From Paramacrobiotus metropolitanus (lineage: Eukaryota; Tardigrada; Eutardigrada; Parachela; Macrobiotidae): a DNA stretch of 64,000 nucleotides. Numbering within the stretch: position 1 is the first letter of the stretch; each line of letters starts with the position of its first letter. The stretch lies in the NCBI RefSeq assembly GCF_019649055.1, contig NW_026570373.1, positions 209,665-273,664 of the forward strand. Direction: 5' to 3'. The notes under the pieces are model-generated. The model worked only from the letters and a program-made list of their open reading frames with translations, ran no database searches and was not told the origin of the DNA. Below, one piece after another: positions 39,723-63,749 of the stretch. Made by a program: the position numbers and the translations under genes.

Positions 39723-40739
39723 ATGCATATTTATGGAGGAAAATATTTTGAATCTCATCCCGTATATCAGTGGAACTGCGTGGATGTACCTCTTCCAGCA
39801 TGGTGAAGTGATCAACGTGGCGGAGAACGGGCTGATCGTGGATTTCCAGTGCAGCGAACAGCGCTCACAGTTGGTCAGCCACGACAAAATCTTCAGCGCA
39901 TTCATCGCCCCGCATTCCGTTCCGTATCGCTCGTGGTATGATGAAATTGACGGGAACTCCGCGGTGACGGAGAATGTCCACGTGCAGGTGTTGTGGCGCT
40001 CGCATCCGGGGGCTCCGTGGCTGTGGTATCCTGGTCGGCTGCTCAGTCGGGCCCTGTTTTACCCGTGTGCCACCATCACATTTCTCATTGCCGAAGTTCA
40101 GCATGATGGCTGGTCAGCCGCCGAGCTGTTCCCCGTCAACCAGGTGCGTTTTCCGCCGTCCGAGGAAGATCTGGCCAAACGAGCGCTGCCGGCGAACGCC
40201 TTCGTGTTACGGCAGTCTCGTTTGCGGGAGAATTATTGGCCGACCGATACTTCCTTCAATCAACACTTTGAGGCGATCCGGTGTGTGCATATTGTATCTA
40301 CTCGCAACCACATGATAGAGTACCTGCAGCGCTGTGATGCGCAACCACTGACGGAAGAGAAATGGGTGCGATGGGTACGTAATTCACAGTACAGGTACAT
40401 ACCAGTACGTCTTCAAGTACAGTAATTATGAAGATACCTGCAAATGTAGTTTGAGAAACAGACAAAAGCCGCGGACGACTTTCCTGCTTTTTTAATAATA
40501 ATTTGCAGTGAATTTTAAAATTTTGTTAACCGTAAACTGCTAATTATTAACCCTAATTTTGCTAACCGTGTTGTTTTCGATGTCTTTTACATTTTTTAAA
40601 TTCTGGCGAAAATTAATTATGATAGACAAAATTAAGTAATAAGCCTTAACGAATCTGAAATTTAAAAAAATGTAAACTTCAAAAAATTTCAGGCAGCTCA
40701 GCTTTATAGAATAACGCTTCACATCAGCCCACATCGGCA

Positions 40740-41370
40740 ATCTTCTCGATGACGAAACTAAACACGAAAATCTCTATTGGTTTGCGTCTTGGAGCAGATA
40801 TTTGCAGGAAAACCACATAACTGCACCAAATGCCATAAAGGGTGGACAAGCTCGGACACCACGGGCTATCGTGCAGCTACTCAGCCGGTAGACATGCGCC
40901 ACGGAGGACTAAACAATATCGTGTGTCGCGTGTTTCAGCCGGAATTCCAGCTAAGCTTGAACCACGCGGCACTTCGTCAACCACAGATCAACGCCCAGAC
41001 GGTTGTACGCAATCCGCCTGGAAAAGAGGGATGTGCCTGGCCTGGGATGGGTGGTAACGTGCGTCGACACAATGGCCCTTTCCCATCGCCCGTCAACGTC
41101 GGTTACGGCAGGTGCTGCTGCTGTTCAAGCGGTGAACGAATCGCGACATTATGCATGTTACAAGGGCGCTACATCTTTTCTCCGATCGCCTTCGAGACGA
41201 TGGGACCCTGGGCCTGATGGGCTATCGCCATTGTAAAGAGTTGGGGCTTTAAAAGACTGCAGCACGGAGCGTCGATCGCATGAATTTCTGCGCCAGCGGC
41301 TTTCGCTCAAATCAGCGCGGATGCAACATCTATCCTTGGCACGATGGACGGAGTGGATAGTTTAAATGAA
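40740..41370 (+). pseudogene. Retrotransposon (non-LTR type) C-terminal fragment in intron 1 of unit 1
   Basis: The frame around 41150-41217 reads YIFSPIAFETMGPW, and 41283-41348 reads FLRQRLSL then (one base shifted) ISADATSILGTM. From memory, this order (FxPxAxETxGxW, then QRLS, then a small-residue block ending LGT) is typical of the C-terminal end of reverse-transcriptase polyproteins in invertebrate genomes. Upstream frames in 40777-41130 look like the preceding region but contain stops. Dead fragment on the same strand as the host gene. Confidence 0.55.
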
Positions 41371-42809
41371 GTTTTGCTGTTGTGAATAATATCACGTGTT
41401 TGTTTTTCTTCCACCTGATCTGGCCACGTTGATTATTAATAAAGAAAAAGGAGCTTTATAGAACAAACATAACGCAATTAAAATTCTATCAAAACAAATG
41501 GATGTCGTGGAATTCTTTGCTATGTATTTCTCGTGCACGCTGCAACTCTTTTCTGATGTTGTTTAGAGAAACGATTACGATTTGATCCGCAAATATATCG
41601 CAGAGCTCCAGGCAAAGGAAAACGCCCAACCGAATGGCTCTGGCATGCCGTCAGTGGGCGCCGGTGTGAAGCGCAAAAACCCCGGCGACGACGCACCGCC
41701 TGAAACCGGGCGGGTTATTCCCACCGAGACGCATCTGCTGCGCGAGATCTTCCAGTCACTGGACACCGTCAGCCGTCAGCAACTGCGTCGCGTGTGTCCG
41801 CTGTGGAACTCCGTCTTGACCGGCGCCGACAGCGCTCACACGGTCCGGGTCTCCTTCGACAGATGCAACGCAATGGTCCCCTCTGCGCATTCGCGCCCGG
41901 ACCCGGAGAACTTCCTGCGGGTGTACTTCGCGGTGGGTGGTATGCTCAGGGCCATTGCTCCCGCCACGCAACGGCTGATTATCGAGGAGGTGTGCAATGA
42001 GCTCCTATTCCATGTGGTGATCGTCATTCGCTGGTTGTTGCGGCATCTCCACATCCGCCAGCTCATCCTCCACCGGGTGGACCTTAACTGGGATGATCGC
42101 CTGACCGAGTTTCCCATTGCGGCGGCGTATAAGGGGGAGGGGCGGGTGTGTATCCGGCGTCTGGCGGCGGCCCTGTCAGCACTGGCGCCGTTCTGCGATG
42201 AAGTACGGCTTTGGCATTGTGCATTCAGTTGCAGTGGCCGGATGAAGGCCGTTATTCCGCAAGCCAGGATTCGGCTAGATGCAGCGGATATTGCCGGGCA
42301 GTTCTAGGATATCTATGAGGCCCATTTGTCGCGTGAGGGGTTGTGTCGGGAGGCAGTGGCCGAATGGATTCGCAGAGGGTCAAGAGGATTCCGCAAAATG
42401 GTCGCGGAGGTAAAACGTCACTAAAACCCCGTATACAAGTACGTCGCTCGATCTCCGCATGCGGTCGTACTTGCCAGTTTCTTGCTTATTATGGCATTAA
42501 ATTGTTTTGATTGTCGCTAATTATTAAGTTATTTTACGTTTCGGTAACACAAATAATCATTTTTGTCTGGAGCAAAATTAGAGGTAGCGAAAAGAGAGGT
42601 AAAGAGCCACCAAACACCATTTATGTGTAACTCGATCTGCGCTTGCGGAGGTATTTGATTTGCTGTTGCATATTTTTTGCTTTATTGTTTAATTTAATTT
42701 TTGTTAGTCACTAATTTACTACTTCACGTTTTGGTGATGAGAATTGTGAAATTCTGTCTGAGGTCAAGTTGGAATTATCTTAGGAAATTGCACTTTTTGC
42801 TTGGTTCAA

Positions 42810-43056
42810 GGGAAGTGATGCGGCACATGGTACCAAATTTGGGTACATGTATTTTTATAAAAACGTTTATTGTCCGCATTCTTTACACTTCTTTTCATAT
42901 TTTGGTTTCATTCGGTACTGGTGATTGTGGCCAAATGATTTGTATGCAGTGGTGTCAAAACGTTTGCGCGCGCAACATTGTGAATGTACGGTACATTATT
43001 GTACCGCGTCTTACGTAATGTACACGAAATTGGTACCTTATACCGGGTCACTTCCC
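42810..43056. mobile_element. 247-bp fold-back related to the 488-1332 element
   Basis: Ends GGGAAGTGATGCGGCACATGG and, inverted, GGGAAGTGACCCGGTATAAGG. Both arms then contain GGTACCAAATTT-type sequence as in the 488-1332 element. The right flank is TTAA (43057-43060) and the left TCAA. It lies in intron 2 of unit 1. Confidence 0.75.
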
Positions 43057-43106
43057 TTAAATAAAATATGGAAATTAAAATTTAAACGTGGATGTTTGTC
43101 GCCTAG

Positions 43107-43307
43107 TTTCTCCATGGTTACCAGAGTTGTGACCCGCGACTGACGACGCATTATCGTGGCAGAGAGTGGACCGAGGAGAATCTGAACGATCTGGATATCT
43201 CCAAGCTGACCACGGTTACGTTGCGAGCTTTGCTAGAAGTCCTTCCCTTAGAATGGGAAGTTTTCAGGGCCAAGTATAGTCAGTGTTACGATGAAGGTGA
43301 CGGTTAA
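43107..43307 (+). other. Exon 3 of unit 1 (C-terminal block)
   Basis: Acceptor CGCCTAG precedes TTTCTCCATGG. Sixty-six codons: GYQSCDPRLTTHYRG, EWTEENLNDLDISKL, TLRALLEVLPLEW, to TAA. Listed separately because gene finders may miss this short final exon. Confidence 0.75.
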
Positions 43308-43487
43308 AAATCCTGCCAGATGACGCTGCAAGCCTGCAACGGCCAGTTGGTACACGGCTACACGGCACGAAAACCTGCACCGCTGTGTTTTACTTTTGAC
43401 TAAGACAGATTTGTAGTTTTTTTCTGCCAGGGTGCAGATACTAAAGTGTAACGCTATACTCGTAGTTGAAGTTTTGGAGTTTTACTA

Positions 43488-43493
43488 AATAAA
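43488..43493 (+). terminator. Poly(A) signal, unit 1
   Basis: AATAAA about 180 bases past the stop of exon 3. Confidence 0.5.
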
Positions 43494-44356
43494 GAGTTTA
43501 TTTCTCATCTGTGCCCGACAGCCGGATGTGGTTGAACGAGGCTGGGTAGACCGCCATACGCGGGACAGAAGCGGCATTAATTTTCCAATAAATAGTGGGA
43601 AGACCCATTAGTGCAAGGGTTGCGAATTTTTGCTCAGTTATTCCGTTATAAACGGCTGCATATAAAACACTGTATAATTTCCCGGGATGCGTCTTGACAG
43701 CAGAAAGCAGACATAACTGGTAACTGTACTGGTGTAAGTATTCAGCCTGTGCAATGCCCAACCGCCCGCGTGCGAGGCTGTTAGTCTGTACTGTTCGCAG
43801 TGTTCTACAGAAAGCTCACTTCTGTGCATCGCATTAGAATTCAGCAGACTGCTTAACACTCGCCCTCGTCCATGTGCCTGGGAGGCACATTTAATCATTC
43901 AAAATTCATGGAACATTACACTAGCAGCTGACTTCCTCCTACCTAATCTGAATTCCTCAGAAAATTTGTTTTGCTTTTCACTTATTGAAACAGTTAGTAG
44001 AAATAAATGAACTGAAAACTTTAAAACTACGAATTCCAACCGCTTCCGGTTGGTGAACAAATGGCAGCCTCCCAGTCTGGCAGCGTGATTTGGCTGTGCT
44101 GCGAATTTTTATTGCGAAATCGGAAATCCTCAATTCTTTCAAATTCAATTTACCAATTGAAAAGTAACTCTCTCCACTTGTGTGCTTAAGAAAAAGGAAG
44201 AACAAAGCGTAGAAAACATTCTGCATGAATACCAGACCGTTCTATACCAGATTGGAACGAACCATGTGCTGCGCCTTCGCGGCACACAAGAACACTCCGT
44301 GTAATTAAACCATAGACGAGTGCGAGTGTTCACAATCAGTTTGCACTCACGCAGTT
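43494..44356. other. Intergenic segment shared by the array
   Basis: The part at 43690-43835 (around GCAATGCCCAACCGCCCGCG) is repeated with changes at 51395-51510 and in part near 62393-62415. These are duplicated flanks of the tandem units rather than genes. Confidence 0.6.
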
Positions 44357-44361
44357 TATAA
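44357..44361 (+). promoter_or_regulatory. Candidate TATA box of unit 2
   Basis: TATAA within AGTTTATAACTTTTA, 105 bases before the ATG. The same block is conserved upstream of unit 4 (51572-51576), with CAGTTTAGTT and TTGGTTCTCAA also shared. Confidence 0.4.
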
Positions 44362-44465
44362 CTTTTATTGTACGTTTTACTTTTCAGTTTAGTTAGTCTA
44401 AAATTTCCACCTAGCAGTACTTGCAGTATTGGTTCTCAAATTTTGTGTGCCGTTGTTAGTTAAAA

Positions 44466-47400
44466 ATGTACATTTATGGAGGGGAAGATGTCAGATCTCA
44501 TCCCGTGTACGCGTGGAACAGTGTTGATGTCTTGACGGAGAGCGGTCTTTTCCAGCACGGCGAAGTGATCGATGTGGCGGAAAACGGTCTGATCGTGGAT
44601 TTCCACTGCAATGAACAACGCTCGCAGTTAGTCAGCTACGACAAAATCTTCAGCGCTTCCACTGCCCCCTGCTCCGCGGGGTACCATATCTGGTACTTAG
44701 AACTGCGAAAGAACCCCGCCGTAAAGGAGAACGCCAGCGTGCAAGTTTTGTGGCGCGCACATCCAGGCGCTGCGTGGCTCTGGTATCCTGGCCGGCTGCT
44801 TAGCAAGCCTATGTTCTTCCCCTTCTATGTGGACCTGCTCATCGTCCAGATACAGCCTGGTGGCTGGCAATCTGCGGAACTCTTCCCCGGCCAGCAAGTG
44901 CGTTTTCCGCCGTCCCGGGAAGCTCTGGCCAAACGAGCGCTGCGGCCGAACGCCTTCGTGGTGCGGGAGTGTCGTTTGCCGAAGCATAACTGGTTGACCG
45001 GGACGGATGATCGCCGTCGTCGTCAGCTCAAGGCCTGGTGGAGTGTGCGTGTTGTCTCGGTGCAGAACGCAGTGGCTAGGCTCCTGCAGCCCAGTGATGC
45101 ACGGCCGCTGACGAAAAAAAATTTGGTGCGTAATGGTAAATCTGATAAATAACTGCTAGTACATTTTTATTATGTTTATCAGCTTATTTATGTTTTTATT
45201 TGCTATTGTTAGGAAAACAAAGCAGACGTTATTAGTAAAACAAAGCAGACTGCAGAGACTGATCATGAGGTCTTTCCATCAAGAATTAATAATTTTTTAA
45301 TCGTAAGGGGAGGCTATGTTTAAGCGAGTGTTAATCAATTGCTAAATTAATGTACAATATACTGTACACATACAAAATTTATTATAATAATTATATAGTA
45401 CCCATAAGGCCATAATATAGGTAATCGATAAAAGTTGGTGTATATTCGGAGAATTTAAATAGTAAAAATGAATATCAAATAAAACCAAATAGTACGTATA
45501 CCGGTATACGTATGCAGGATATATTAGTTTGTACAGTAAGTAATCCAAAATTAATAAATGAATGGAGAGCTTTATGGTGCCCGCTCGGGATGCATGGTAT
45601 TGTACAGATATGTTAAACGGCGATGCTTTGATTATGTTGTTCGTCAGGTTGGACAGAAACGCGAGAACGATTTCGCGTTGGAGAACGAGTGCCCTCGGGA
45701 GAACATTGACCACGATGATTCCGGCATGCCGTCCCGAAAGAAACGCAAAACCGACGCCGATAGCGAGCAGCCGGACATGGACGCCCGGATTCCCACGGAA
45801 ACGCATCTCCTTTGTGAGATCTTCCAGTCACTGGACACCACCAGCCGTCAGAAACTGCGCCGCGTGTGTCCGTTGTGGAACACCGTCTTGACCGGCGCCG
45901 ACAGCGTACACACGGTGCGGGTGTCCTTCGCGATGACCCCGGCGTTGATCGGCGTATACGGCGCGGTCGGTAGTATGTTCAAATGCCTGCACACTACAAC
46001 ACAGTGGTTGATCGTGGAGCATGTCGGGTGCGGGGAGGTGGGGGCGGTCCTGACGGTGATTGGCCGGATGCTGCGGACGTTTCACATCAAGGAGATCGTC
46101 TTCCATAAGGTGAACTTCGAGTGGAGTGAGAGTGTTGACTTTCCCATCGCGGATGAAGTGATTGTTCCGGAGGAGCAGAGTCAGGATGTGATGCAGAATA
46201 TCTGGCGTCTGGCGGGGGTGTTGAAGGTTTGGGCGGCGTTCTGCGAGGCATTACGGCTGTGGCGGTGTGAATTCCGTTGCATGGGCCAGATGGCCGCCGT
46301 TATTCCGCGCGCGACGATTCCGCTCGATGCAGCGGATCTTCCCGAACAGTTCTGGGATCTCTATGAGGCGCATCTGGCGCGTGATGGATTGGAGCTGGAG
46401 TATTTTGCGGAAAAGATTCGCGCCGGATCCGCAGTCTTTCGCCATGTTGTTACTGAGGTAAAAGCCAGTAGAAAAATGCAGTACAATTTATCATTTTAAA
46501 TCTTGGTCACTAGCATGAAGTGGTATCGTAGAATAATTAGCGGTAACTTCAACAAATGCAGCCGCTTATACGTTGATCGGGCTGCTTTTTCTTTAATAAA
46601 AGTAATTGACCAATTCACATAAAGGACGGACTAACATTCTATTGGTCGATTGTCTAATATCGTCCAGCAGGTGTAGATTGTACAGACTGCTGCTGCATTT
46701 GTTGTGTATTTCACTGCTTTCACTTTTTTTCTGATCTTAAAAAGTGAAATTTTTTTAATTGGCTAAGGGGCCTGATAGCTACATATTTTTTGGAAATTTC
46801 GCCAGGAATTTTCTCTTTAATACAGGCTATGTTAAGAAACACAGGCCTAATTCTTCAACAGCTGAGTTTCGCCGCGCAGTTTTTGCTTTGCATAATGGTG
46901 GATTCGTTTTCTGGCTGCAGCAGATTTCGAAACGCAGGATGCCAATTCAGCTGTGCTATCGTTATCTTTGAGATGTAAGCCCCAGGATAAATCTACAAAA
47001 TGTACGCGTAGTCGCATACGTGGACGATTTTCCATGAACAGTAGGGAAGCAATGGAGCGGAAGTCAAACACCAGCATACAGTGGATGTTTTCTGGGCCTT
47101 GCTCATCGCCACTCTGCACACACAGTGGCACACCGAGCCATACACAACGGTTTTTCTAAGAAAAAAACAAAAATGAAAGCAAGTCTTGCTTAAGCTTCTA
47201 CATTTAATTATTATAATGTTTTTGTAATTCGTGAATATATTTGCGTTCAGCTGTGATCGTACCTTCTTGTTTGACAACTGCTTAGCCAGCATGATCCGTG
47301 CTGGTAGACGCACTTGAATCTTCTCGCGAATGATCTGTTTGACTGACTCCACCACTCATATTAATTTTTTGGTCGAAACTAGCGACTGAGTAAATAAAGC

Positions 47401-47939
47401 GCAGTAAAAAAACATTTTTTATGAGATGATATCCAGATTCCTACGATTTTCACCTAGTCATTTAGTGTCGAAAGCAATGCTGTAACTGCATATTGTACAC
47501 AGCGATCTACACCTGCTGAAAATGCGAGACGGAAACCACGTGACTAGTTTACCACGTGGTTGAATATGTGAATTGGTCAATTGTCGGTTTTGCCTGCGGT
47601 AATAGTATTACTAGTCGTCGACAGAAAATTACAGTTCGATTTGATAAAAATAAAATGTGATAAGAAATAACACTTATGGTAATAAGAAAACAGATGTAAA
47701 TGTCGACGTTGATCGTTTGCAGTTGCTGGAGGGTTATCAAAGTTGTGATCCGCGATTGACGACGCATTATCGTGGCAAGACGTGGACGGAGGAGAATCTC
47801 CAGGATCTGGATGTCTCCCAGCTGACCACCATCACACTGCGGGCGTTGGGAGGTGTTGTCTGGCGCCCCCGTCGCTGAGGAAGATGTCGATGAGCAGGAT
47901 AACTGCGAAATTGGCGACTGTGAAGACGATGGCGAATAG
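44466..47939 (+). CDS. Unit 2: Tudor/Agenet-like plus F-box protein, subfamily B (best-preserved copy)
   Basis: Exon 1 44466-45125 (220 codons), exon 2 45648-46457 (270 codons), exon 3 from 47723. Donors TTG/GTGCGT and GAG/GTAAAA and acceptors GTCAG and TGCAG recur at the same places in all units. Exon 1: HGEVIDVAENGLIVDF at 31-46 and SVQVLWRAHPGAAWLWYPGR at 91-110 resemble the two Agenet/Tudor-like modules of FMRP. Exon 2: a basic RKKRK stretch, then the F-box from about residue 268 (IPTETHLLCEIFQSLD, KLRRVCPLWNTVL), then an LRR-like tail (IKEIVFHKVNF, LRLWRCEFRC). F-box proteins recruit substrates to SCF ubiquitin ligases. Exon 3 shifts frame after TLRAL and stops at 47878; the acidic tail seen in unit 4 survives in the next frame to TAG 47937-47939. 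So the product is ~541 aa without the tail. Functions are inferred from domain patterns. Confidence 0.8.
45126..45647 (+). other. Intron 1 of unit 2
   Basis: AT-rich; no embedded gene recognised. Confidence 0.55.
46847..47355 (-). CDS. Possible small gene nested in intron 2 of unit 2, opposite strand
   Basis: Two minus-strand open blocks are joined by a good intron: 47355-47263 (ESVKQIIREKIQVRLPARIM...LSNKK), donor GTACGA, acceptor TTTTTTTCTTAG, then 47155-46847 to a TAG. The joined frame gives up to 133 codons. The first block has no ATG in frame (it opens GTG just after a TGA), so an upstream exon would be needed or the model is wrong. The string NRPRMRLRVHFVDLSW faintly recalls the centromere pseudo-GTPase CENP-M; I do not trust this without a search. 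No counterpart is seen in the introns of the other units. Confidence 0.3.
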
Positions 47940-48409
47940 TTCCGCTTTAACGAGCTCTTAGCTGTCACTAATTAGTTCACGGTGTACAACTTTATCGGTG
48001 TGCTGGTAGCGAGCGAAACTGAATAGGTCGTAATTTTTTTACCGGAATGCACGTACGTACTGTAGATCAAATTTAATATTGTACTTACTTGAATTCAGTG
48101 TTTGCTGGAATGTTTATCGATGAGTTTTTATCGCCTACCGCGCTATCCGGAGCCCGACGACCGGGTGCGCTTAATGATGTTTTTTTGTTTAATGCAAGTG
48201 CGGCATTAAAGGACATACGTGTGATGCCGTATGATGAAAATACGTACAAACTTCAAAACATTAAATTAAGCAGTTGTACGTACGTATGGAACAAATACTT
48301 TTGAAATTAATGAAATCATTCAGTGCTACTGAATCTCACAGAGTTCTTTGGTGTTTATTTCACGTACATGCGACAACTTTTTTCTGGTGTTGTTCGTAAT
48401 GGTTGGCAG

Positions 48410-49941
48410 AGAATGGAATACGATGTGATCCGCAAATTTCATGCACTGTTCGGGGTGAAGGAAAATGACCAACCGAATGGCTCTGAAATGCCGTCTTTGG
48501 ACGCTGTTGGGAAGCGCAAAACCCCGAAAACGCCGCACCCCCGAATATGGGAACGGATGCGTGATTCCCATGGATACGCATCTGCTACACGAGACCTTCG
48601 ACTCACTGGACAGCGTCAGGCGTGCGAAACTGCGTCGCGTGCGTCCGCTGTGGAGTTCTGTCTTAACCGGCGCCGACAACGGTCAAATTTTGCGGGTATT
48701 TTATTGACCGATGTAGCGCAGTGAACCCCTCTTCGCGCCCGGACCCAGGGAACTTCCTGCGGGTGTACTTCGCTGTGGGGGGTATGCTTAAGGCCATCGA
48801 TCCCTCCACGCAACGCCTGATTATCGAGGAGGTGGGCGATGAGCTCCTGTACCATGCGGTACTCGTCTGTCGCTGGTTGCTGCGGCATGCCCACATCCGC
48901 CAGCTCATCCTCCACCGGGTGGACATTAACTCGGATGATCGGCTGACAGAGTTTCCCATTGCGGAGGCGTATAAGGGGGTGGGGCGCGTGTTTATCCGAC
49001 GGTTGGCGGCGGCTCTGGCAGCACTGGCGCCGTTCTGCGATGAAGTACGGCTGCGGCATTGCAATTTCAGTTGCAGCGGCCGGATGAAGGCCGTTATTCC
49101 GCAGGCGAGGATTCGGCTGGATGCAGTGGATATTGCCGGACAGTTTTGGGATGTCTGTGAGGCCCATTTGTCGCGTGAGGGGTTGAATCGAGAGGCAACG
49201 GCCGAATGGATTCGCACCGGGTCGAAAGGTTTTCGCAAGATGGTTGCCGAGGTAAAATTCTGTAAATCGCTCGAGTCTTCGCATGCGGTTATTCTTTTTT
49301 AGTTGTTAGTTGTTAATTTACTACAGCAAGTTTTAGTAATTGTTAGAATTTATATTATGAGATAATTATAGTCACGGGAACAGAAACCGGAAGCGTCGCA
49401 TACACTGGTGTTGTTCTGTTATGTTCTGTTCATTCAACGTTATACAAGCTGGTTGCTTATATAGCACACGGTACATTCACGATATTAGTAAGTTACTGCA
49501 CCTAAACATCTGATAAACAAGGGGATTGGTGACCTGGGTGCACCGTACACTCATAGATCAGCTAGTAAGACAATGGTCATAGTTCACAAGTACATGACAC
49601 ATCATTAGTGTATATTATATTGGTAATATAATTTCTAACAGTAATAAGAATTATTAATTTTTGGCCGAGGAAAGGATGTAGGAAACGAATAAGAACACAA
49701 TGAAAAAAATGCGGAAATTAAGATTTGAACTTGGATGTTCGTCGTCTAGCTTCTCCGGGGTTACCATAGCTGTGATCCGCGACTGACGACGCACTATCGT
49801 GGCAAAGAGTGGACGGAGAAGAGTCTGAACGATCTTTACACCTCCAAACTGACCACCATCACGCTGCGCGCCTTGAAAGAAGTTCTGCCCGTAGAATGGG
49901 AAGTTTTCGCGAAACAGTATACGGTATACCCAGTGTTATGA
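48410..49941 (+). pseudogene. Unit 3: F-box family copy, subfamily A, without exon 1
   Basis: Exon 2 48410-49251 and exon 3 49750-49941. No Tudor-like exon is found between unit 2 and this copy, so it is a partial duplicate. Exon 2 has two frameshifts: one between 48510 and 48570 (a net four-base gain in the KRK...PEYG linker relative to unit 5) and one near 48700 just after LRV. The F-box lies in the middle frame (DTHLLHETFDSLD, RRVRPLWSSVL). The LRR-like tail (LILHRVDINSDD, VRLRHCNFSC) and QFWDVCEAHL, which unit 1 has lost, are in the last frame. Exon 3 (LTTHYRGKEWTEKSL) ends early (YTVYPVL) owing to an insertion near the end. Confidence 0.8.
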
Positions 49942-51571: not shown

Positions 51572-51576
51572 TATAA
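51572..51576 (+). promoter_or_regulatory. Candidate TATA box of unit 4
   Basis: TATAA within GAGTTTATAACTTTTACTG, 111 bases before the ATG, conserved with unit 2. Confidence 0.4.
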
Positions 51577-53850
51577 CTTTTACTGTGCGTTTTCCTTTTT
51601 CAGTTTAGTTAATCATTTGAAATAATGTCCATCTTGTGATACTTGCAGTTTTGGTTCTCAATTCGTATGTGGGTTGCTATCTAAAAATGCATATTTATGG
51701 AGGGCAAAATTCCCGATCTCATCCCGTGTACGGGTGGAACAGTGTGGATGTGCTGACGGAGACCGGACTGTTCCAGCACGGCGAAGTGATCGACGTGGCG
51801 GAGAACGGGCTCATCGTGGATTTCCAGTGCAGCGAACAGCGCTCGCAGTGCGTCAGCTATGGCAAAATCTTCAGCGCTGCCATCGCCCCCTGTTCCGCAG
51901 GGTACCTGAGCTGGCACGACGAAGTGCAGATGAGCCCCGCCGTGACGGAGAACACCAGCGTGCAAGTTTTGTGGCGCGCACATTCAGGCGCTCCGTGGCT
52001 ATGATATTCTGGTCGACTCCTCAGCCAGGCGTTCTGCTTCCCCTATTACATCGACCTGCTGATCGTCCAAGTACAGCATGATGGCGGCCAATCAGCGGAA
52101 CTCTTCCCCGTCGAACAGGTGCGTTTTCCGCCGTCGAAGAAAGCGCTGGCCAAACGAGCGCTGCGGCCGAACGCCTTCGAGGTACGCGAGTGCCGTTTGC
52201 CGGAGAATAACTGGCTGACCGGGATAGATGATCGCCGTGCCCGTCAACTGAAAGCGTGGTGGAGTGTGCGTGTTGTGTCGGTTCGCAACGCGGTGGCTAA
52301 ACTCCTGCAGCCCAGAGATGCGAGACAACCGACACAGGCCAATTTGGTGCGTCTGTGACGGTATAAGTATTCAGTAAATACACTGAACTCTGTATTGATA
52401 CTTACATGATTATTAATTATTTTAAAAATTTTACAGTTCCTTGTACGGTATGTTAAGTATAAATTTTATAATTTTGAATCAGCACTTACTGATTATATTT
52501 TAATTGCAAAATTGGAAACGATTCTGTACATTAAGTTGGAACTTGTAAGTATGCGTTTAAACATAAAAAAAAGATAAGAAGTATACTATAAAAATAATAT
52601 TTTTTCATAGGATCATCGTTAAATGGAAAGGTTAAATACTCGATAAAAACGAAATATTTATGTGACACAAAAATAATACGAGTACAAACAAGAAACTGGA
52701 AACAAAAATAAGACATTGAAAAGAAAACTATACACAGGACCGTTTTCTGGGAAACTTCCTGTTTACGGGCTTGGCTACTCAGTATTAATTAGATTCAATC
52801 AAACAGAAAGTTCTGATAGCAAATAAATAAAAATAAGAATAAATTTGATAAATATAGTATACTTTATATGACATCTGAAGTACGGCAAATACAAGAATTT
52901 ATGTTGTCCGTTCGGGATGTGAGTACGTACTTTGTGTTCGCGTACGCTTCGAACGGTATTTTTTTATAATAATTATTATTGTATTTGTCAGGTTCGGCAG
53001 GCCACTGAGCAGGATATCGTGTTGGAGAACGACTCCTCCCGGGCGGATGATCAGCAAGATGACGCCGGCATGCCGTCCCGGAAGAAACTCAAACATCACG
53101 CCGATGACGGGCAGCCGGCGACAGACGCCCGGATTCCCACGCAGCCGCATCTGCTGCGCGAGATCTTCCAGTCACTAGACAGCGTCCGCCGTCTGCAACT
53201 GCGCCGCGTGTGTCCGCTGTGGAATACCGTCTTGACCGGGGCTGACAGCTCCCACACGGTCCGGGTATCCTTCGACATGGACCCGGGTGTTATATACGTC
53301 GCTGTGGGAAGTCTGCTCAAGTGCCTGGATCATTCCACACAACGGCTGATTGTCGAGGATGTCGGTGGCGGGGATGTGGGAGTGGTCATGACGGTGATGG
53401 GCCGGATGCTGCGGACCCTCCGCATCAAGACGATCGTCTTCCACCGGGTGTCTTTCGACTGGGATGATACTGATGAATTTCCCGTTGGGGAGGAGATTGT
53501 TCCGCAGGAGAACCAGCCTGAGGACCGGTTGACTTTGCAGAGGGGTATCACGCGTCTGGCGACGGTTTTGAAGGCGTGGGCGGGGTTCTGCGAGGAATTA
53601 CGATTGTGCCGGTGTAAATTCAGCTGCGACGACCTGATGGAAGCCGTTATTCCGCATGCGACGATCAAACTGGATGCAGCGGATATGGCCGAACAAATCT
53701 GGGGTCTCTATGAGACACATCTGTCGCGTGAGAGGTTGGATATCGAATATCTGGCGGAATGGATTCGCACGGGATCCGCAGCATTGCGCCGGATGGTTAC
53801 GGAGGTGAAAACCATTATCTAAGAGCTAGAAAATAAATGAATTAATCATC

Positions 53851-54102: not shown

Positions 54103-54250
54103 TTTCAGTGCGGTGCACTTGCCTAGGGTAGTTAACGATCAACAGTTCTAAAAATTACCGATCGGATTCTACTTTTCTGACGTAGAGTCTCGCGAGAAAA
54201 CCGAATCTGAAGTCAAAATAATATTAACAGTAAACGGAAATATATCCGCC

Positions 54251-54493
54251 TGTGGAAATCGGGCTATGGATTCTCCTAATTACAGCTATATATTTTATTG
54301 GGGCAAAATTATTACTACGTATTGGATTTCGGACGTCGAGAAACATTGTATTTATCTTTTTAATTATATAATTTTAACAGGAAATTAAATACATCCAACT
54401 GTGGAAATCGGGCTATGGATTCTCCTAATAAAAACTATATATTTTGATCGGGGCAGAATTATTATTACGCACTGGATTTCGGACGTCGCAAAA
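54251..54493. repeat. Tandem duplication, ~149-bp period, in intron 2 of unit 4
   Basis: TGTGGAAATCGGGCTATGGA recurs at 54251 and 54400, and TTGGATTTCGGACGTCG-type sequence ends both copies. Confidence 0.85.
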
Positions 54494-54885
54494 CAACTGT
54501 TATCAATTTAATTTAAATAAAATGTGCAAAGGGCTTTAACACTGATGTTTGTCGCGTGCAGTTTCTGGAGAATTATCAGAGCGCGGATCCGCGGTTGACG
54601 GTGCATTACCGTGGGAAACAGTGGACGGCGGAGAGCCTCAAAGATCTGGATCTTACCAAGCTGACCACCATTACGCTGCGGGCTTTGGCCGAAGCTCTGC
54701 CGGCCGCGTGGGAAGACGGTGAAGAGCAGAATAGTGAGGAAGTGGATGACAGCGAAGAAGATGATGAATAATTCCGCTTAGCGACTCTCTCAGCTGCCAA
54801 TTAGTCCACTGTGCGAAAAATTTTACCGGTTGTTTTTTGAAGTCCGAATTTTACGAGATCTTCTAGTTCTTTTCCGCGGAGCACA

Positions 54886-54891
54886 AATAAA
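54886..54891 (+). terminator. Poly(A) signal, unit 4
   Basis: AATAAA about 115 bases past the stop of exon 3. Confidence 0.5.
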
Positions 54892-57161: not shown

Positions 57162-57589
57162 ATGAACATTTATGGAGGAACAAACTACCAATCTCATGCC
57201 GTGTACGCATGGAACAGTGTTGATGTGCTGACGGAGAGCGGACTTTTCCAGCACGGCGAAATGATCGATACAACGGAGACGGGTCTCATCTTGGATTTCC
57301 ACTGCAGCGCACAGCGCTCGCAATTCGTCAGCTACGACAAAATCTACAGCGCTTTCACCGCACCGTTCTCCGCTCCGTACGACTCCTGGGACGAGGAAAT
57401 CAAGGAGAGCCCCGCGGTAACGGAGAACGCCGTTGTGGAGGTGCTGTGGCGCGCACATAAGGGTGCGGCCTGGCTGTGGTATCCGGGTCGCTTGCGCAGT
57501 AAAAAGATGTTCTTCTCTATTGACAACAGCATCCTCCTCCTTGCCCAAGTGGAGCAGGATGGCTGGCACCCAACCGAACCGTTCCCGGC

Positions 57590-57597
57590 CGACCAGG
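57590..57597. repeat. hAT target-site duplication, left copy
   Basis: CGACCAGG, identical to 59204-59211. Confidence 0.9.
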
Positions 57598-59203
57598 CAG
57601 GGCCTAAAAACTTGTGCTCACATAGCACAAAATGTGCTCACATAAAGGTGCATGTGCTCACCTAGATCGCAACTTGTGCTTAAAAGTTGTCAATACTCCC
57701 CCCTTCTGTGTAATTAACCGGCTTCTAACTGTTTTTAATTGTTTTAAGAAAGCAAAAACTTTCACGAACAAACCAGTAAAAGCTATAAGCCAATGCGTGT
57801 CACGTTAACTTTCACTGGGAGATTTGGCAGACGGCATGTTTTATACTTACTAACCACACTTCTGATGTTGCATAACTTACATGCCCACAAGTCAATAGTG
57901 CTCTTGTTGCACGTAGTAAAATCACGCGCGCTGTTTATAGAATTTGTATAAATGTCTTTCGTGCGCAGTTAGTAGAGTGCATAGGGTCGTATAATACTGA
58001 AAATCAATCTTTAATCAGCGAACTCAGAGAAACAGCTACGTTCTCTTATTTGACCTCCAGTTGGCAGAATCAGGTGAAAAAATTAAAAATTTACACAAGG
58101 CACGTATTTGCTTGCTTTGATTGTGTGAATTTGTGTCATTTGATGTACAAGCATTGTGTGCTTCAACTTTCACGGGATTATCTGGTGGTTATTTGAGAGA
58201 ACGACCATTTCGGGTAGACATGCGGTATTTTAGTGGCTGTACCAGCAACAGTTGTCCATTTACCGATAGAGTTAATAGGGAATGTCATCTGCGTAATGGA
58301 AACAATAGTCACATTTATGACTTTCGAAATTACTGATATACCTTTTTCTCATTTCCGCTTTTGGATTTACCCTGTGAAACAGCATTATTACTAAGTTCAA
58401 CAAATGCTGCAATGCGCTGCACTGTGCATTTGAGTTATGTAGCGGCAGAAGTGTGGTTACTTAAAAACTTTCCCAGTGTCTACTGGCAAATCTCCCAGTA
58501 ATTGAAAACGTTTAAACTTGGTGGGTAGTGGCGCATATATCTCTCTACTGGTCGATATTTTTACAGCCTCTACTCGTAGAACTTGTGATTTTGGTCGACC
58601 ATTAGAATATCTTAGCGATTCAGCTCGTGGTTATCTTAGTTTACTTCATCTTTATCAAATACCAGTTCGCCCGGTCCAATACTGACACCGTTGCTGAATG
58701 TCAGCCGTAAGGTCATCAATGCAGCCCCCGCCATGCTAAGAGTTCGGGGCAAAACGAATCACAATAGTCACTACAAAACGCTTCGCTAGTTTTATGTACG
58801 AGTGTTTAACAAATTTGACAAACCCGAAATAGTTCTGAATAAATAACTTAATTTAATTGATTTTTTTGTGCTTCCTGGTCAAAAAGCAACGTCGGCTTCG
58901 CACGAGGCCTCGATTCGGACTCAAGAAATAAGCGAAAAAAGACAAAACGTTCGCTGTCGTATTTACAAAACTGCTGCACAAAAAAACTAACAACTTCAGC
59001 TATCTCACAACTCATGTTTTTTGTATTAAATGCCAATTTTACTGGATAGGCATTCCCATAAAATTTTCTGTAAATTTGCCAACGCGTGCAATCTCCTGAG
59101 TCATGACAATGTCAGCCAGTACGAAAATACAAAGCAAATAATCAATACCCCCTCTTTGCGAAATGAAGTGTGCTCACATAGATTTTGAAGATTTTAGGCT
59201 CTG
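57598..59203. mobile_element. Non-autonomous hAT-like transposon, 1606 bp
   Basis: Terminal inverted repeats CAGGGCCTAAAAACTT and CAGAGCCTAAAATCTT (right end inverted) start with the CAG(G/A)G of hAT elements. The flanking 8-bp duplication CGACCAGG is perfect. Subterminal TGTGCTCACATAG words occur at both ends, as in hAT elements where transposase binds. No transposase frame is recognisable. An inner pair of inverted repeats (57814-57830 and 58483-58499) may mark another element inside it. It lies inside exon 1 of unit 5 and must postdate that duplication. Confidence 0.9.
57814..58499. mobile_element. Possible element nested in the hAT copy
   Basis: ACTGGGAGATTTGGCAG at 57814-57830 and ACTGGGAGATTTGCCAG (inverted) at 58483-58499 form a near-perfect 17-bp terminal repeat around 686 bp. 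No target duplication confirmed and no gene inside. Confidence 0.5.
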
Positions 59204-59211
59204 CGACCAGG
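59204..59211. repeat. hAT target-site duplication, right copy
   Basis: CGACCAGG. Its AGG supplies a potential splice acceptor (AG at 59209-59210) next to the codon GTG. Confidence 0.9.
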
Positions 59212-60818
59212 TGCGCTTTCCGCTGTCAGAGGAAGACCTGGCGGAACGATCGGTGCTGCACAGCACGTACGTGTGGCGCGAGTGTCGTTTGCCGGAGAAT
59301 TACTGGGCGACCGTCATATCGACCGGGATAAATGATAACGTCCAGCGTCACATTGAGAACTTTTGGAATGTGCTTATTGGGTCGGTTCTCGGTGGAATGA
59401 TCAAGTTCCTACAGCGCAGCGATGTGAGACCGCTGACAGAAGAGACGTTGGTATGTGTAAAATAATACTTCGATACTTGAGTATTGCACTGCGTAGTTTG
59501 CACTAAAATACGCTCAATGTGCGTATTCTAGTGCAAAGACTGAGAAAATCACTTTAAATCAGACTTTCCTGCACAGGTATTTTTTAATGTATACTTCATA
59601 ATTTTGTTGAAAATTTGAAAAAAGCTTAAAGAAGTAAATTCGAATATTTTTAGTTTTATTATTTCGAATGTTTATTCTTTATCAATGCTTTTAAATTTTC
59701 TCAGGTTTTACGTTTGTCTTGGGTTTTTTATGTTTGTGAAATTAATATTCAGAATTAAGTTAATTAACAGCGTGATGAATATAATAATTTAATAAAGACA
59801 AGCGTAATTTAAAATTAGATGGTCGGTTATAGAATGAAAGTGTCCATAAAAAAAAGAAAATAAAATTCATCAATAAATATGTTGTGAGTTGTGGCGGCAA
59901 AATAGCCAATTCGATATAAAATAGATGAATCTCGTGGATAGCGCGCATGCGGGTGAACATGATTATTTTGTGATGCTTTTCGTAATGCTCGACAGAAATA
60001 CGAATACGAGAGGTTCCGACACTTTACTCATAAGTCCAAGGCGGGGGTTTGGGAGAACGACCCACCTGATGGCTGTCGCGCGGGAATGAAGCGCAAACAC
60101 CCGGAAGACGACAGGCACCCGGCAATGGAACGCGTGATTCCCACGCAGCCGCACCTCCTCCGCGAGATCTTCCACTCACTAGACAGCGTCAGCCGGATGA
60201 AACTGCGTCGTGTCTCTCCGTTGTGGAATGCCGTGCTGACCGACGCCAGCAGAAATCAAACAGTCCGCGTGTCCTTCGCGATGAATCCCTATTCGAGCTT
60301 TGCCGCGGAGAACGTCATCCGGGTGTCCAGCGCTCTGGGTGGAATGATCCGGGGCATCGACACCTCGACACGATGTCTGATTGTGGAGCATGTGGGCGAC
60401 GAGCACATGCCCACTGTGGTGCTGGCTGTTCGCTGGTTATTGCGGCAGGTCCAGATTAAACAACTCATCCTACACCGGGTGGACATTGGCTGGGATGAGG
60501 GATTGGGCGACATTCTCCCTGAGGGCGAAGATGAGCCTCTTGACCGGGTGTACATCCGCCGTCTGGCGGCGGAGTTGAAGGGATTGGCACCGTTCTGCGA
60601 GGAGCTGCGACTGTGTCGGTGCGCGTTTCGTTGCACTGCATGGACGGAAGATGGCGGCGATCCCGCCGACAACGAGGCTTAAGCTGGATGCAGCCGATCT
60701 GGAAGCGCAGTTCTGGGATCTCTACGAGGCCGATCTCTCGCGTGATGGGATTAACATGGAGGAGATGGCTGGATGGATTCGCGCAGGATCAAACGGACTG
60801 CGCCGAAAGGTTGCGGAG

Positions 60819-61358
60819 GTAAATCGAAAAGAACTGGCGGTCTCCGCATATATGCGGTCGTGCAAATGATTCTGAGATTATTCTTGGATTATTTTTAGAT
60901 TGTTCTTACTTACGATTAGTTTATTCTAACATTGCTTTTTCGCATTTTTTGATTTATTGTGTAATAATTGCTTTATTTCTGGGAGTGTTGTCTTTTGGCA
61001 TTTATTTGGAAGCATTAATTTTTTCTGTTATGTTTTTAATAATTATTTTATTACCGGTGTTAGTTCTCAGAATTAAGTTGTTTCTAACTATTGCTGTTTT
61101 ATTTTATTATTACGTATTATTGCTGTCAGTAATTTACTGTGAGCTTGGTAATAGAACAAATCTATACTTTTATGATGGAATGGCCATCAAAATGATGCGC
61201 AAACGCGGGCACAAATAGTCAGTTTGTAAAATCTGGGGTAAAATTATGGGTTGTGAATCACGTAGGCTACATGCTCTTTTTATCGGGAAAAATAGTATTT
61301 TTTGTTTGGTTGAAATGAAGTGCGAAAAGATTTTACCGTTGATGTGTGTTTCATGCAG
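60819..61358 (+). other. Intron 2 of unit 5
   Basis: AT-rich. The open frame at 60949-61218 is hydrophobic only because the sequence is T-rich; I do not regard it as a gene. Confidence 0.6.
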
Positions 61359-61550
61359 TATCTGGAGGATTATCAGAGTTGTGATCCGCGATGGACGACG
61401 CATTATCGTGGGCATGAGTGGACGGCGGAGAATCTCCAGGATCTGGATGTCGCCAAGCTGACCACCATCACTCTGCGGGCTTTAGAAGCGCTTCCCGCAG
61501 AATGGAAAAGTTTGGTCGAACGGGGTGATCCATTGTATGTGGACGAATAA

Positions 61551-62858
61551 TTCCTACCGAACGTTGGTTTACTGCGCGATATTAGCTGCGCCGGGGTGGT
61601 TGGACGTTTGATACTACACCGCGATCTCTGCTATTTTTTCCCCAGTGCAAATACCAATTATACAGTTGCACATTTCTTTTTAAACGCCACGAATGAGATT
61701 TTATCCTCACTTTGTAGCTAGCTAATTAATTTATTGACATAAACAACGGGTGTTCGTAGTTATTCTTCGCTTATGAATTTTTGTTCACTTTATTTCGCCG
61801 CACCATGTGGCGCGCAGTTTGCACGAACCGGTAGAGTTCTGAGTGGATATAATACAATGTACTCGTAGTCGTAACTCCATTGAGTCCATTCCGTGTTTTT
61901 TACACTAAAATTAGTAGAAATAATTGCTGGGAGAAATTCAAACGGCAACACCGTTTCCTTCCAGGAGAAAACACGTGAAATTATGAGAATAGCTTTGTGC
62001 TGGCCGGAAGTATCGCGAACACGGCGCAGACAATACAGTTGCAGGCGCCTGCAAATGACGGAAGTTTAGAAGTGCTGCATATTAAGCCGACGGTAGTGGA
62101 ATTGTGCCGGTAGTGATTAGCTGGAAATATTTTTATACTTCCCAAAACTGAAAATTTTAATTACGATTTACAAATACAGACTGTAGGTACAAAGGTGTTA
62201 ACATCCGTTGCAAAACATCAAAACAGAAGTCATGCGGTTAATAGAAATCATTCAGTTAAATGGCATCGAATTCAAAATTATTATTAGAACGGTTGAAGCT
62301 ATTTTGTACGCCTTAGGTCAGTAAGTCGGCCACAGCGGAAGAAGATGGCCGGCTACGGAACGATCAAACAGCGCTATCGGATGCGGCAAGCCTGCGCAAT
62401 GCACAACCGCCCTTTGCTGAAGCCTGCAGATATACCGACTGCTTGGCAAAGAAGCAAAAAAAACACAGCCGTACTTTGCGGTTGCTTTATGAGAGCAGAC
62501 ATATTATATATAATATGTCTGCTCTCGCTTTATTCGGCTAGTTGTTTACAGATTATTACACTAGTTTACCGATTGATGGTGAGTAGCAGATTGTTTGCTA
62601 GATAGCGTACTGTGCTTGGCACTGCTTGCCTACTGTCTTTATAGACACAGCTGAAACTTAAGTCCAGTACTCTCCATTATTACAGCTATGAGCTGAGTGA
62701 CGGTACTGGTAGAGTAATGGATCAAATTTCTGTGAATTATTTAACGTTGCCGACTTGCCGTCTACGTTTTCGGTTTGTAATTTGCGATGTGCATCATTCC
62801 CACACTTTCCCCTACTAAATTTGCCTGTGGCTCTTTTGTCGTTATTCGTTAGCTGAGA
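61551..62858. other. Intergenic region between units 5 and 6
   Basis: Contains duplicated array flank (62010-62060, 62393-62415) and a perfect palindrome at 62491-62526. No gene supported. Confidence 0.5.
62491..62526. repeat. Perfect 36-bp palindrome
   Basis: GAGAGCAGACATATTATA is followed immediately by its exact complement, without spacer. Confidence 0.9.
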
Positions 62859-63749
62859 ATGCAGCTTTATGGAGGAAAACACTTCCTTGGCTACGAACCC
62901 GTGTACCAGCTTAGCTCGGTGGATGTGCTGACGGAGAGCGGACTCTTCCAGCACGGTGAAGTGATCGATGTGGCAGAGAACGGTCTGATTGTGGATTTCC
63001 ACTGCAGCGAACAGCGAGCGCAGTTCGTCAGCTACGACAACATCTTCGACGCTTCCGTTGCCCATTGCACCAGTGAGTATTCCAGTTGGCGTGACGAACT
63101 GCACAGCAGTCCCGCGGTGAGGGAGAATGCCAGCGTGCAAGCGCTGTGTCGCGCGCATCCAGGTGCGCCGTGGCTGTGGTATCCTGGTCGACTGCGGAGT
63201 ACGGTCCTTAATCCCCTCCAAAGCGGGCTGATGGTGGTCGAGATCCAAATAAATGGCCGATTAGTAATGGAGGTGCTACCCCCCTGCCAGGTATCGATAC
63301 ACATGCTGTTGAGAGTGATCTTGTCGTTCTTTGGCTTTTTTCATGAAACAGTCTTCGCAGTTCTCTGACCTGGTGCTTCTGTAGCGTACGTATTACTGGT
63401 GGTTAACGAAGTCTAGTGGCTTGGTAGCCTTAGGCGATATTTTTTATGGGATACGGGTATGTCAATGTGAGAGTGCCTGTTTCTAAAACACTCACGCGCT
63501 CAGGTGCGCTTTCCGCCGAACCAGAAGGATCTGTCCCGACGCGCGCTGCATCCCAACCATTTTGTTGCCCGGGAGTGTCGTGTACCGGAGAATTATGGGT
63601 CCACCGTAACGCCCGCGATCGATGCTGGTTTCCGACACAGCTTTAGTGAGGCACAACGTGCGCATATTGTCCCTGTTCTCGATCGAAACTGCGAGAAGCT
63701 GAAATATGTGCAGCGAAGTGATGGACGGCCACTTACGGAAGACGAAGTG
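62859..63749 (+). CDS. Unit 6: Tudor/Agenet-like family gene, first exons only (runs off the window)
   Basis: Exon 1a 62859-63290 (144 codons) starts MQLYGG and has SVDVLTESGLFQHGEVIDV, NGLIVDFHCSEQR and APWLWYPGRL. Exon 1b 63504-63749 (82 codons) starts VRFPP and ends LTEDEV before a GTGCGT donor, the end of exon 1 in the other units. Between them is an extra 213-bp intron (donor CAG/GTATCG, acceptor GCTCAG) that units 1, 2 and 4 lack. No lesion is visible, so this may be a working copy, but its F-box exon lies beyond the window. The second half (PENYGSTVTPAIDAG, VQRSDGRPL) is the most divergent of the family. Confidence 0.75.
63291..63503 (+). other. Extra intron in unit 6
   Basis: 213 bp, phase 0, starting GTATCGATAC and ending CACGCGCTCAG. 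It interrupts the family sequence at the same CAG/GTG codon boundary where the hAT element sits in unit 5. No terminal inverted repeats seen in it. Confidence 0.75.

What the first reader, a model, noticed from the sequence alone, without database searches (positions are those of the whole stretch)
39723..63749. Tandem family joining an FMRP-like Tudor/Agenet module to an F-box
Six same-strand copies share a three-exon plan. Exon 1 has two blocks that look like paired Agenet/Tudor modules (HGEVIDVAENGLIVDF; VLWRAHPGAxWLWYPGRL). Exon 2 has an F-box with an LRR-like tail. Exon 3 has a compact block HYRGxEWTxENLxDLD...LTTxTLRAL that I cannot place. I know of no described family with this domain order. 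It suggests a reader of methylated ligands, or RNP partner, tied to SCF ubiquitin ligase, expanded by tandem duplication.
Basis: partly seen in the sequence, partly recalled or inferred. Interest (0 to 1): 0.78.

Follow-up and report, generated by a model that had tools for sequence, protein, structure and literature searches.

The report
Fragile-X-like domain fused to F-box
A genome that is very probably a tardigrade's carries a very large family of genes in which the protein-binding front end of the fragile X protein is joined to an F-box, the part that normally brings targets to a ubiquitin ligase, and no description of this combination turned up in the papers that could be searched.

Summary
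The architecture is real. Exon 1 is homologous to the FMRP N-terminal domain: Tudor 1, Tudor 2 and, by fold only, KH0. In a PDB profile search the six best hits are FXR1, FXR2 and FMRP; an AlphaFold2 model (pLDDT 87.8) matches FMRP 4ova at Z 13.1. Exon 2 has a genuine F-box and a weakly LRR-like tail. Exon 3 is a conserved block without known relatives.
Nine single ORFs elsewhere in the genome carry the module and the F-box without an intron, and two also carry the exon 3 block.
The family is far larger than six copies: three capped searches give 410 merged module loci on 92 contigs. In the window only unit 2 is shown intact.
The methyl-reader idea is not supported: Tudor 2 pocket residue Y96 is aromatic in 0 of 60 members, though other pocket residues are kept.
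Best reading: an expanded, birth-and-death family of SCF adaptors with an FMRP-derived interaction platform, like the Caenorhabditis A2 F-box family in plan but with another captured domain. Substrates are unknown.

The parts
39723..40365 (+). U1 exon 1 (FMRP-N-like module), probably broken: the conserved start ATG is in another frame from the rest; donor TGG|GTGCGA
41567..42409 (+). U1 exon 2 (F-box + tail) with in-frame TAG at 42305-42307
43107..43307 (+). U1 exon 3 block, stop included
44466..45125 (+). U2 exon 1: FMRP-N-like module (Tudor 1, Tudor 2, KH0-like), intact; donor TTG|GTGCGT, phase 0
45648..46457 (+). U2 exon 2: F-box (Pfam 24.4 bits, cut-off 20.5) and LRR-like tail; acceptor CAG|, donor GAG|GTAAAA
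47723..47878 (+). U2 exon 3: C-terminal block (family consensus YQSxDPRxTTxYRGRxWTxxxLxDLDVxxLTTLT), stop included
48459..49302 (+). U3 exon 2 remnant (F-box region and tail in two frames); no exon 1 match upstream
49750..49941 (+). U3 exon 3 block
51687..52346 (+). U4 exon 1 with in-frame TGA at 52002-52004 (labelled U3 inside the script)
52992..53804 (+). U4 exon 2 (F-box + tail)
54562..54771 (+). U4 exon 3 block
57162..57596 (+). U5 exon 1, first part
57597..59210 (+). U5 insert of 1,614 bp inside exon 1, flanked by repeated CGACCAG, begins GCAGGG (no GT), inverted repeats inside
59211..59450 (+). U5 exon 1, second part
59963..60869 (+). U5 exon 2 region (F-box + tail) in two frames that overlap near 60580-60680; exact acceptor not set
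61359..61550 (+). U5 exon 3 block
62859..63290 (+). U6 exon 1, first part
63504..63749 (+). U6 exon 1, second part, after a 213-bp intron-like insert; exons 2-3 would lie beyond the contig end

Best explanation
These genes encode substrate adaptors of SCF (Skp1-Cul1-F-box) ubiquitin ligases. SHOWN by computation: the exon 1 module is homologous to the FMRP N-terminal domain (Tudor 1 - Tudor 2, with a KH0-like fold after them); it is read in one frame with an F-box, a weakly LRR-like tail and a C-terminal block; every module is under purifying selection on average; hundreds of module loci exist, often in same-strand arrays, with broken copies among them. INFERRED: an FMRP N-terminal domain was captured as one phase-0 exon in front of an F-box gene and the fusion multiplied by duplication; the F-box docks on Skp1; the FMRP-derived platform recruits or pairs with a protein partner, so that bound clients are ubiquitylated. 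The most likely client class is FMRP-type ribonucleoprotein components, because that platform is FMRP's own protein-interaction surface. The more variable parts (linker and KH0 of exon 1, tail of exon 2) would set client specificity. Tudor 1, as constrained as the F-box, would hold a common contact.
For: Profile against PDB: 6 best of 11 hits are FXR1, FXR2 and FMRP, E 2.7e-4 to 0.042. A family profile built without FMRP scores the genome's own FMRP at 25.1 bits against at most 1.8 for 20 shuffles; hhalign probability 92.6, E 4.5e-7. AF2 model pLDDT 87.8, pTM 0.86; Foldseek ranks 1-10 are all FMRP/FXR, best 2.3e-8; VIA Z 13.1, rmsd 6.2, 186 residues aligned to 4ova, model 16-225. F-box: 45 of 45 exon 2 members hit Pfam F-box at E<=1 (members had been gathered with an exon 2 profile that includes the F-box region). 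One-ORF fusions: nine loci, two with the exon 3 block at 44.1 and 34.4 bits, shuffles at most 6.4. Order: 82 of 150 listed exon 1 matches have an F-box match downstream within 2 kb on the same strand, against 12 upstream and 7 on the other strand. ML omega: Tudor 1 0.22-0.24, F-box 0.19-0.23, Tudor 2 0.32-0.35, KH0 0.38-0.47, tail 0.38. Skp1 present, four matches.
Against: No expression, binding or ubiquitylation data were available. The KH0 part matches by fold only: Pfam KH_9 finds just the true FMRP in this genome and is not among the Pfam hits of the 60 members. Tail fold matches are weak (best VIA Z 5.6, Foldseek E 0.015, with unrelated folds at like scores). Domain-average omega is below 1 in each module (pairwise medians 0.41-0.52, single exon 3 pairs up to 1.04), so there is no direct sign of an arms race on a recognition surface. 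In the window four of six units carry lesions and a fifth is cut by the contig end. Within the window's own subfamily (14 loci) exon 1 and exon 2 identities correlate only at r 0.57, with 2 of 2000 permutations reaching it.
Confidence: 0.6

Rival explanations
1. The FMRP-like domain reads methylated lysine (or methyl-arginine) on histones or RNP proteins and delivers them to SCF.
For: Fold is that of a tandem Tudor, a fold shared with methyl readers. F32, one of two putative FMRP pocket residues tested by mutation in PMC5430443 (passages), is F in 60 of 60; W79 is W in 57 of 60; W80 is aromatic in 54 of 60. Of the FXR1 pocket residues named in PMC2970552 (Y95, W97, V66, E104; passages), the V66 position is V in 53 of 60 and the E104 position E in 48 of 60. 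W97 was not tested.
Against: Y96 (Y95 in FXR1) is aromatic in 0 of 60 (V in 47) and Y103 in 2 of 60. The genome's own FMRP has I and R there. F32 may be kept as core rather than pocket.
Confidence: 0.12
2. The FMRP-like domain is a dimerisation or scaffold arm with a constant partner, and clients are chosen by the LRR-like tail and exon 3 block.
For: Tudor 1 is as constrained as the F-box (omega 0.22-0.24 and 0.19-0.23), with the tail and KH0 looser. FXR1 and FMRP are reported to heterodimerise (stated in PMC5688124 section 7). FBXL3, FBXL2 and SKP2 are among the best fold matches of exon 2.
Against: Tail fold matches are weak, with unrelated folds at like scores; no dimer data for this family; KH0 and the exon 1 linker vary at least as much as the tail.
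Confidence: 0.3
3. Exons 1, 2 and 3 are separate neighbouring genes duplicated together.
For: No RNA evidence was available here; U3 has exons 2 and 3 without exon 1.
Against: Nine ORFs carry module and F-box unbroken and two carry all three parts. Phase-0 splice sites recur, taking the best-scoring candidate in each row: donor 1 phase 0 in 50 of 59 rows with a GT candidate, donor 2 in 38 of 45, acceptor 2 in 40 of 44.
Confidence: 0.03
4. The family is mostly decaying duplicate debris with little function.
For: Four of six window units carry lesions; in-frame stops occur in other listed matches, though exon 3 stops can be acceptor TAGs read in frame.
Against: Omega well below 1 on each module across members; long one-ORF members; only 8 of 150 listed exon 1 matches carry a stop.
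Confidence: 0.08

Closest known systems
FMRP/FXR1/FXR2 N-terminal domain (tandem Tudor/Agenet + KH0; PDB 4ova, 4qvz, 4qw2, 3kuf, 3h8z)
   Same: Same order of domains and same fold over 186 aligned residues; sequence homology by profile over the Tudor domains and the start of KH0.
   Different: Joined to an F-box instead of KH1-KH2; aromatic residues of the Tudor 2 methyl pocket lost; hundreds of loci instead of a few (gene number elsewhere is recalled).
Caenorhabditis A2 F-box family (HTH - F-box - FTH; PMC12062965, abstract start and passages seen)
   Same: A foreign domain captured as a single N-terminal exon ahead of an F-box, expansion, N-terminal domain under purifying selection.
   Different: Captured domain is a Tc1/mariner HTH there, an FMRP N-terminal domain here; C-terminal FTH there, LRR-like tail plus exon 3 block here. 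The words 'tardigrad' and 'tudor' occur 0 times in that paper's main text.
FBXL proteins (F-box + LRR; FBXL2, FBXL3, SKP2)
   Same: FBXL3, SKP2 and FBXL2 are ranks 1, 4 and 5 in the Foldseek list of the exon 2 model.
   Different: Matches weak (FBXL3 E 0.015, VIA Z 5.2) and mixed with unrelated folds; short tail; no FMRP-like domain in FBXL proteins (recalled).
SCF-Fbxo4 acting on FXR1 (PMC5688124, section 7 and passages)
   Same: Also links an F-box protein with the FXR1 N-terminal region (aa 173-192).
   Different: There FXR1 is the substrate of a separate F-box protein; here the FMRP-like domain is part of the F-box protein.

Membership tests
F-box proteins | F-box domain above a curated Pfam score | tested here: met
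   Unit 2 exon 2 scores 24.4 bits, cut-off 20.5; 45 of 45 exon 2 members hit at E<=1 (scores of single members other than the first are not shown); nine of nine one-ORF fusions exceed the cut-off of PF00646 or PF12937
F-box proteins | Binds Skp1 within an SCF ligase | not testable with these tools
   Skp1 genes exist, four matches; no binding data
FBXL (F-box/LRR) proteins | Leucine-rich repeat tail | tested here: inconclusive
   AF2 pLDDT 82.5; best VIA row an LRR protein but Z 5.6, best Foldseek E 0.015; no LRR family among the 20 Pfam families listed for the 45 members
FMRP/FXR family | Tandem Tudor (Agenet) N-terminal domain | tested here: met
   single members stay below the Pfam Tudor_FRX1 cut-off (17.8 of 25.9 bits for unit 2)
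FMRP/FXR family | KH0 domain | tested here: inconclusive
   Fold aligned to residue 225 of the model with 4ova, but Pfam KH_9 matches only the true FMRP in the genome
FMRP/FXR family | KH1-KH2 RNA-binding domains | tested here: not met
   No KH_1 hit at E<=1 in nine one-ORF members, while the genome's FMRP scores 73 bits
FMRP/FXR family | RGG box | not tested
   no call made for it
Methyl-lysine reader of the FMRP type | Aromatic residues of the Tudor 2 pocket (Y96, Y103) | tested here: not met
   Aromatic at Y96 in 0 of 60, at Y103 in 2 of 60; other pocket positions are mostly kept: V66 in 53, E104 in 48 of 60
Caenorhabditis A2 F-box family | Tc1/mariner HTH before the F-box and FTH after it | tested here: not met
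   No such family among the Pfam hits listed for the members

The most novel reading that the evidence does not exclude
A tardigrade lineage turned the protein-interaction platform of FMRP into the recognition arm of hundreds of ubiquitin-ligase adaptors, giving a diversified system that finds and destroys ribonucleoprotein components (its own, or those of viruses and mobile elements), with FMRP as the evolutionary donor.
Probability: 0.3. Interest if true: 0.87.

Novelty: new variant of a known kind. Interest (0 to 1): 0.72.

Why it matters
FMRP is a long-studied RNA-binding protein that animals usually have as one to three genes (recalled). Finding its N-terminal platform reused in a very large set of F-box genes suggests that the platform can work away from the KH RNA-binding half. 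It also gives a natural alignment of many variants in which the functional surfaces of that domain can be mapped: what stays fixed (F46, W104, W106, R146, and Tudor 1 as a whole) and what is free. It is a further animal case, beside Caenorhabditis A2, of an F-box family with a captured N-terminal domain. The clients could be sought directly by pull-down from cultured tardigrades.

Tried and rejected
Exons as separate genes: rejected by the one-ORF fusions. Chance similarity to FMRP: rejected (20 shuffles and the reversed sequence). Methyl reader through the aromatic FMRP Tudor 2 pocket: not supported on residues, with the kept positions V66, E104, F32 and W79 told as evidence for it. Positive selection on whole domains: not seen; site-level codon tests were not run. 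Exon 3 identity: no Pfam family in more than 1 of 45 members and one chance-level PDB hit (E 1.2); it stays unplaced.

Module outside this genome: the search for related loci with alignment A1 returned errors for viral contigs and genome contigs (too little conserved); a single-protein scan of viral contigs found no relative. The genome-contig scan was not repeated.

Print search: four terms (F-box, Tudor, FMRP, tardigrade), at least three needed: 6 papers, none with 'tardigrade'; tardigrade + F-box: 9 papers, listing only, titles unrelated; Agenet + F-box domain + domain architecture: 0; tardigrade, fragile X, FXR1, at least two: 615 papers, 8 listed, none of the 8 with 'tardigrade'. PMC11191345 on Paramacrobiotus metropolitanus has 'F-box' 0 times in its main text. 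Most papers of subscription journals, bioRxiv preprints and protein databases were not searchable, so earlier annotation is not excluded.

Rows dropped: A1 kept 60 modules covering at least 170 of 216 profile positions; FMRP, fragments (for example L015, L023, L066) and the window copies other than unit 2 were left out. A2 kept 45 exon 2 rows covering at least 180 of 208 positions, again without window copies other than unit 2. Loci L013-L054 were mostly picked because module and F-box matches already lay side by side, so they are biased for order. The less biased set is L001-L012, the 12 best exon 1 matches: 10 of 12 have an exon 2 match downstream in the locus; L003 lies at a contig end and L006 has none. 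L081-L086 were picked for open frames of 534 aa or more; 6 of 6 carried the F-box. Other long frames in the lists (for example 404, 388, 377 and 376 aa) were not fetched. The 410 loci come from 450 listed matches merged at 400 bp; fragments and broken copies are counted.

Codon models: searches failed on a thread setting, one search ran, looked for the value, read it from the logs.

Full report
WHERE IT IS. The window is G000:C153:209665-273664, and the contig ends at the window end. G000 has 169,799,020 bases in 533 contigs; its contig C1, the longest I saw, has 4,484,719. Paramacrobiotus sp. TYO has an assembly of 170,483,395 bases, 684 scaffolds, the longest 4,484,941 (PMC8277472, table 1 as shown in the passages). 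The genome is therefore very probably this tardigrade. The difference in contig number was not explained, and no marker gene was compared.

THE OBSERVATION. Stop-to-stop frames and direct repeats show six units on the + strand. Unit 2 is intact: exons 44466-45125, 45648-46457 and 47723-47878, all phase 0, 541 aa plus stop. U1, U2, U4 and U5 show all three exons; U3 lacks exon 1; U6 is cut by the contig end. U1, U3, U4 and U5 carry frameshifts, stops or an insert. U6 carries an intron-like insert at the codon boundary where U5 has its larger insert. In the script the unit here named U4 is labelled U3.

EXON 1 IS AN FMRP N-TERMINAL DOMAIN. A single copy reaches Pfam Tudor_FRX1 only below its cut-off (17.8 bits, cut-off 25.9), and 4 of 60 members do so at E<=1. 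Profiles do better. The 60-member alignment A1 against 177,635 PDB sequences gives FXR1, FXR2 and FMRP as hits 1-6, E 2.7e-4 to 0.042, over both Tudor domains. A family profile built without FMRP finds the genome's own FMRP (C5, 630-aa frame with KH_1, KH_9 and Tudor_FRX1 above cut-off) at 25.1 bits, E 1.1e-5 for a set of 20,000, against at most 1.8 bits in 20 shuffles and -0.6 for the reversed sequence. The iterated profile, which also hits FMRP strongly, came to hold FMRP in its training set, so it is not used as evidence. hhalign of A1 with that FMRP gives probability 92.6, E 4.5e-7, colinear from Tudor 1 into the start of KH0. The AlphaFold2 model has mean pLDDT 87.8 and pTM 0.86. Foldseek's ten best PDB chains are all FMRP or FXR (best E 2.3e-8). 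VIA-align places 186 residues of 4ova_C at Z 13.1, rmsd 6.2, model 16-225, which includes the KH0 part; the best non-FMRP/FXR row is a plant tandem Agenet at Z 9.6. The KH0 assignment rests on fold, since Pfam KH_9 finds only the true FMRP.

EXON 2 AND EXON 3. Forty-five of 45 exon 2 members hit Pfam F-box at E<=1; they had been gathered with an exon 2 profile. The exon 2 model has pLDDT 82.5 and helices alternating with strands. Its best Foldseek match is FBXL3 (E 0.015), with FBXL2 at probability 0.98 and unrelated kinase folds between; VIA gives an LRR protein first but at Z 5.6, a level the tool itself calls common. 'LRR-like' is therefore plausible, not shown. Exon 3 has two invariant residues over 45 sequences and no convincing Pfam or PDB relative.

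THE JOIN. No RNA was available, but the genome bears on it. Nine loci carry the module and the F-box in one unbroken frame: L013 (C31), L014 (C93, whose frame stops within the tail), L074 (C118), and L081-L086 (C148, C31, C35, C106, C121, C195). L084 (650 aa) and L086 (559 aa) also carry the exon 3 block in that frame, 34.4 and 44.1 bits against at most 6.4 in shuffles. They fall in at least three places of an exon 1 tree (FastTree supports 0.91-1.0). Genome-wide, 82 of 150 listed exon 1 matches have an F-box match downstream on the same strand within 2 kb, against 12 upstream and 7 on the other strand; 46 complete triples lie on 14 contigs. Among the 12 best exon 1 matches, fetched without regard to the F-box, 10 have an exon 2 match downstream. 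Exon 1 and exon 2 identities correlate over 42 loci (r 0.89, highest of 2000 permutations 0.20). Within the subfamily outside the window's own clusters (28 loci) r is 0.85, highest permutation 0.54; within the window's own subfamily (14 loci) it is weaker, r 0.57 with 2 of 2000 permutations reaching it. What the nine ORFs show is that the joined protein is encoded in this genome; for unit 2 itself the splice is inferred from phase and sites.

SIZE. Three single-protein searches from different subfamilies, each with 150 places listed, overlap in 35 places at most; merged at 400 bp they give 410 module loci on 92 contigs. This counts fragments and broken copies and is limited by the caps. Of the 150 listed Pfam F-box matches in the genome, 62 have such a module upstream within 2.5 kb and 3 downstream. 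There are also Tudor_FRX1-like frames without an exon 2 profile match at E<=0.01 in the stretches fetched (L067-L073, L075-L077).

SELECTION AND POCKET. Pairwise dN/dS medians are 0.41, 0.50 and 0.52 for exons 1, 2 and 3 (266, 183 and 334 pairs with dS<1.2). Codon-model omega is 0.24 and 0.22 for Tudor 1, 0.19 and 0.23 for the F-box, 0.32 and 0.35 for Tudor 2, 0.47 and 0.38 for KH0, 0.38 and 0.38 for the tail, in the window's subfamily and in the rest respectively. Tudor 1 is thus constrained about as strongly as the F-box. At the methyl pocket, F32 is F in 60 of 60, W79 is W in 57 of 60, the V66 position V in 53 and the E104 position E in 48, but Y96 is aromatic in 0 and Y103 in 2 of 60; this genome's FMRP has I and R at the last two. 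The pocket residues are from PMC5430443 and PMC4259889 (passages) and PMC2970552 (passages).

HOW IT PROBABLY WORKS. An F-box joins a protein to Skp1-Cul1 (established knowledge); Skp1 is present, four matches. The FMRP N-terminal domain is a protein-interaction platform: in PMC5430443 FMRP 1-200 pulled down FXR1, FXR2, FUS, LSM14A, DDX5 and others (passages). The simplest reading is an SCF adaptor whose FMRP-derived arm recruits RNP-type partners. The alternative that the arm only dimerises and the tail picks clients is close behind, because Tudor 1 is as constant as the F-box. In plan the family parallels the Caenorhabditis A2 F-box genes, where a captured single-exon N-terminal HTH under purifying selection was proposed to bind substrates (PMC12062965, abstract and passages). 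Innate immunity has been suggested for the Caenorhabditis expansions (PMC8665587, passages) and is possible here, but nothing here tests it.

VERDICT. New variant of a known kind: an F-box adaptor family with an FMRP N-terminal domain.

Noticed in passing
window 57597-59210 and 63291-63503: Two neighbouring copies are interrupted at the same codon boundary (CAG|GTGCGC): U5 by a 1.6 kb insert flanked by repeated CGACCAG and holding inverted repeats, U6 by a 213-bp insert with GT-AG ends. Possibly a mobile element or intron gain at a proto-splice site.
   Followed up: partly
L067-L073, L075-L077 (C106, C209, C114, C54, C65, C126, C44, C242, C73): Other frames with Tudor_FRX1-like N-termini and no exon 2 profile match at E<=0.01 in the fetched stretch; a wider FMRP-Tudor-like expansion may exist in this genome.
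   Followed up: partly
L014:1914-1916, L011:3012-3014, L027:1626-1628: Exon 2 frames cut by a single stop with the same frame continuing at once, as in U1 of the window; perhaps young nonsense copies.
   Followed up: no
G000:C5:3433332-3433952: The genome's own FMRP has I and R by alignment at the Tudor 2 pocket positions Y96 and Y103, so loss of those aromatics may predate the fusion.
   Followed up: no
window 54238-54303 and 54387-54452: Two copies of a 66-base direct repeat (86% alike) in U4 intron 2.
   Followed up: no
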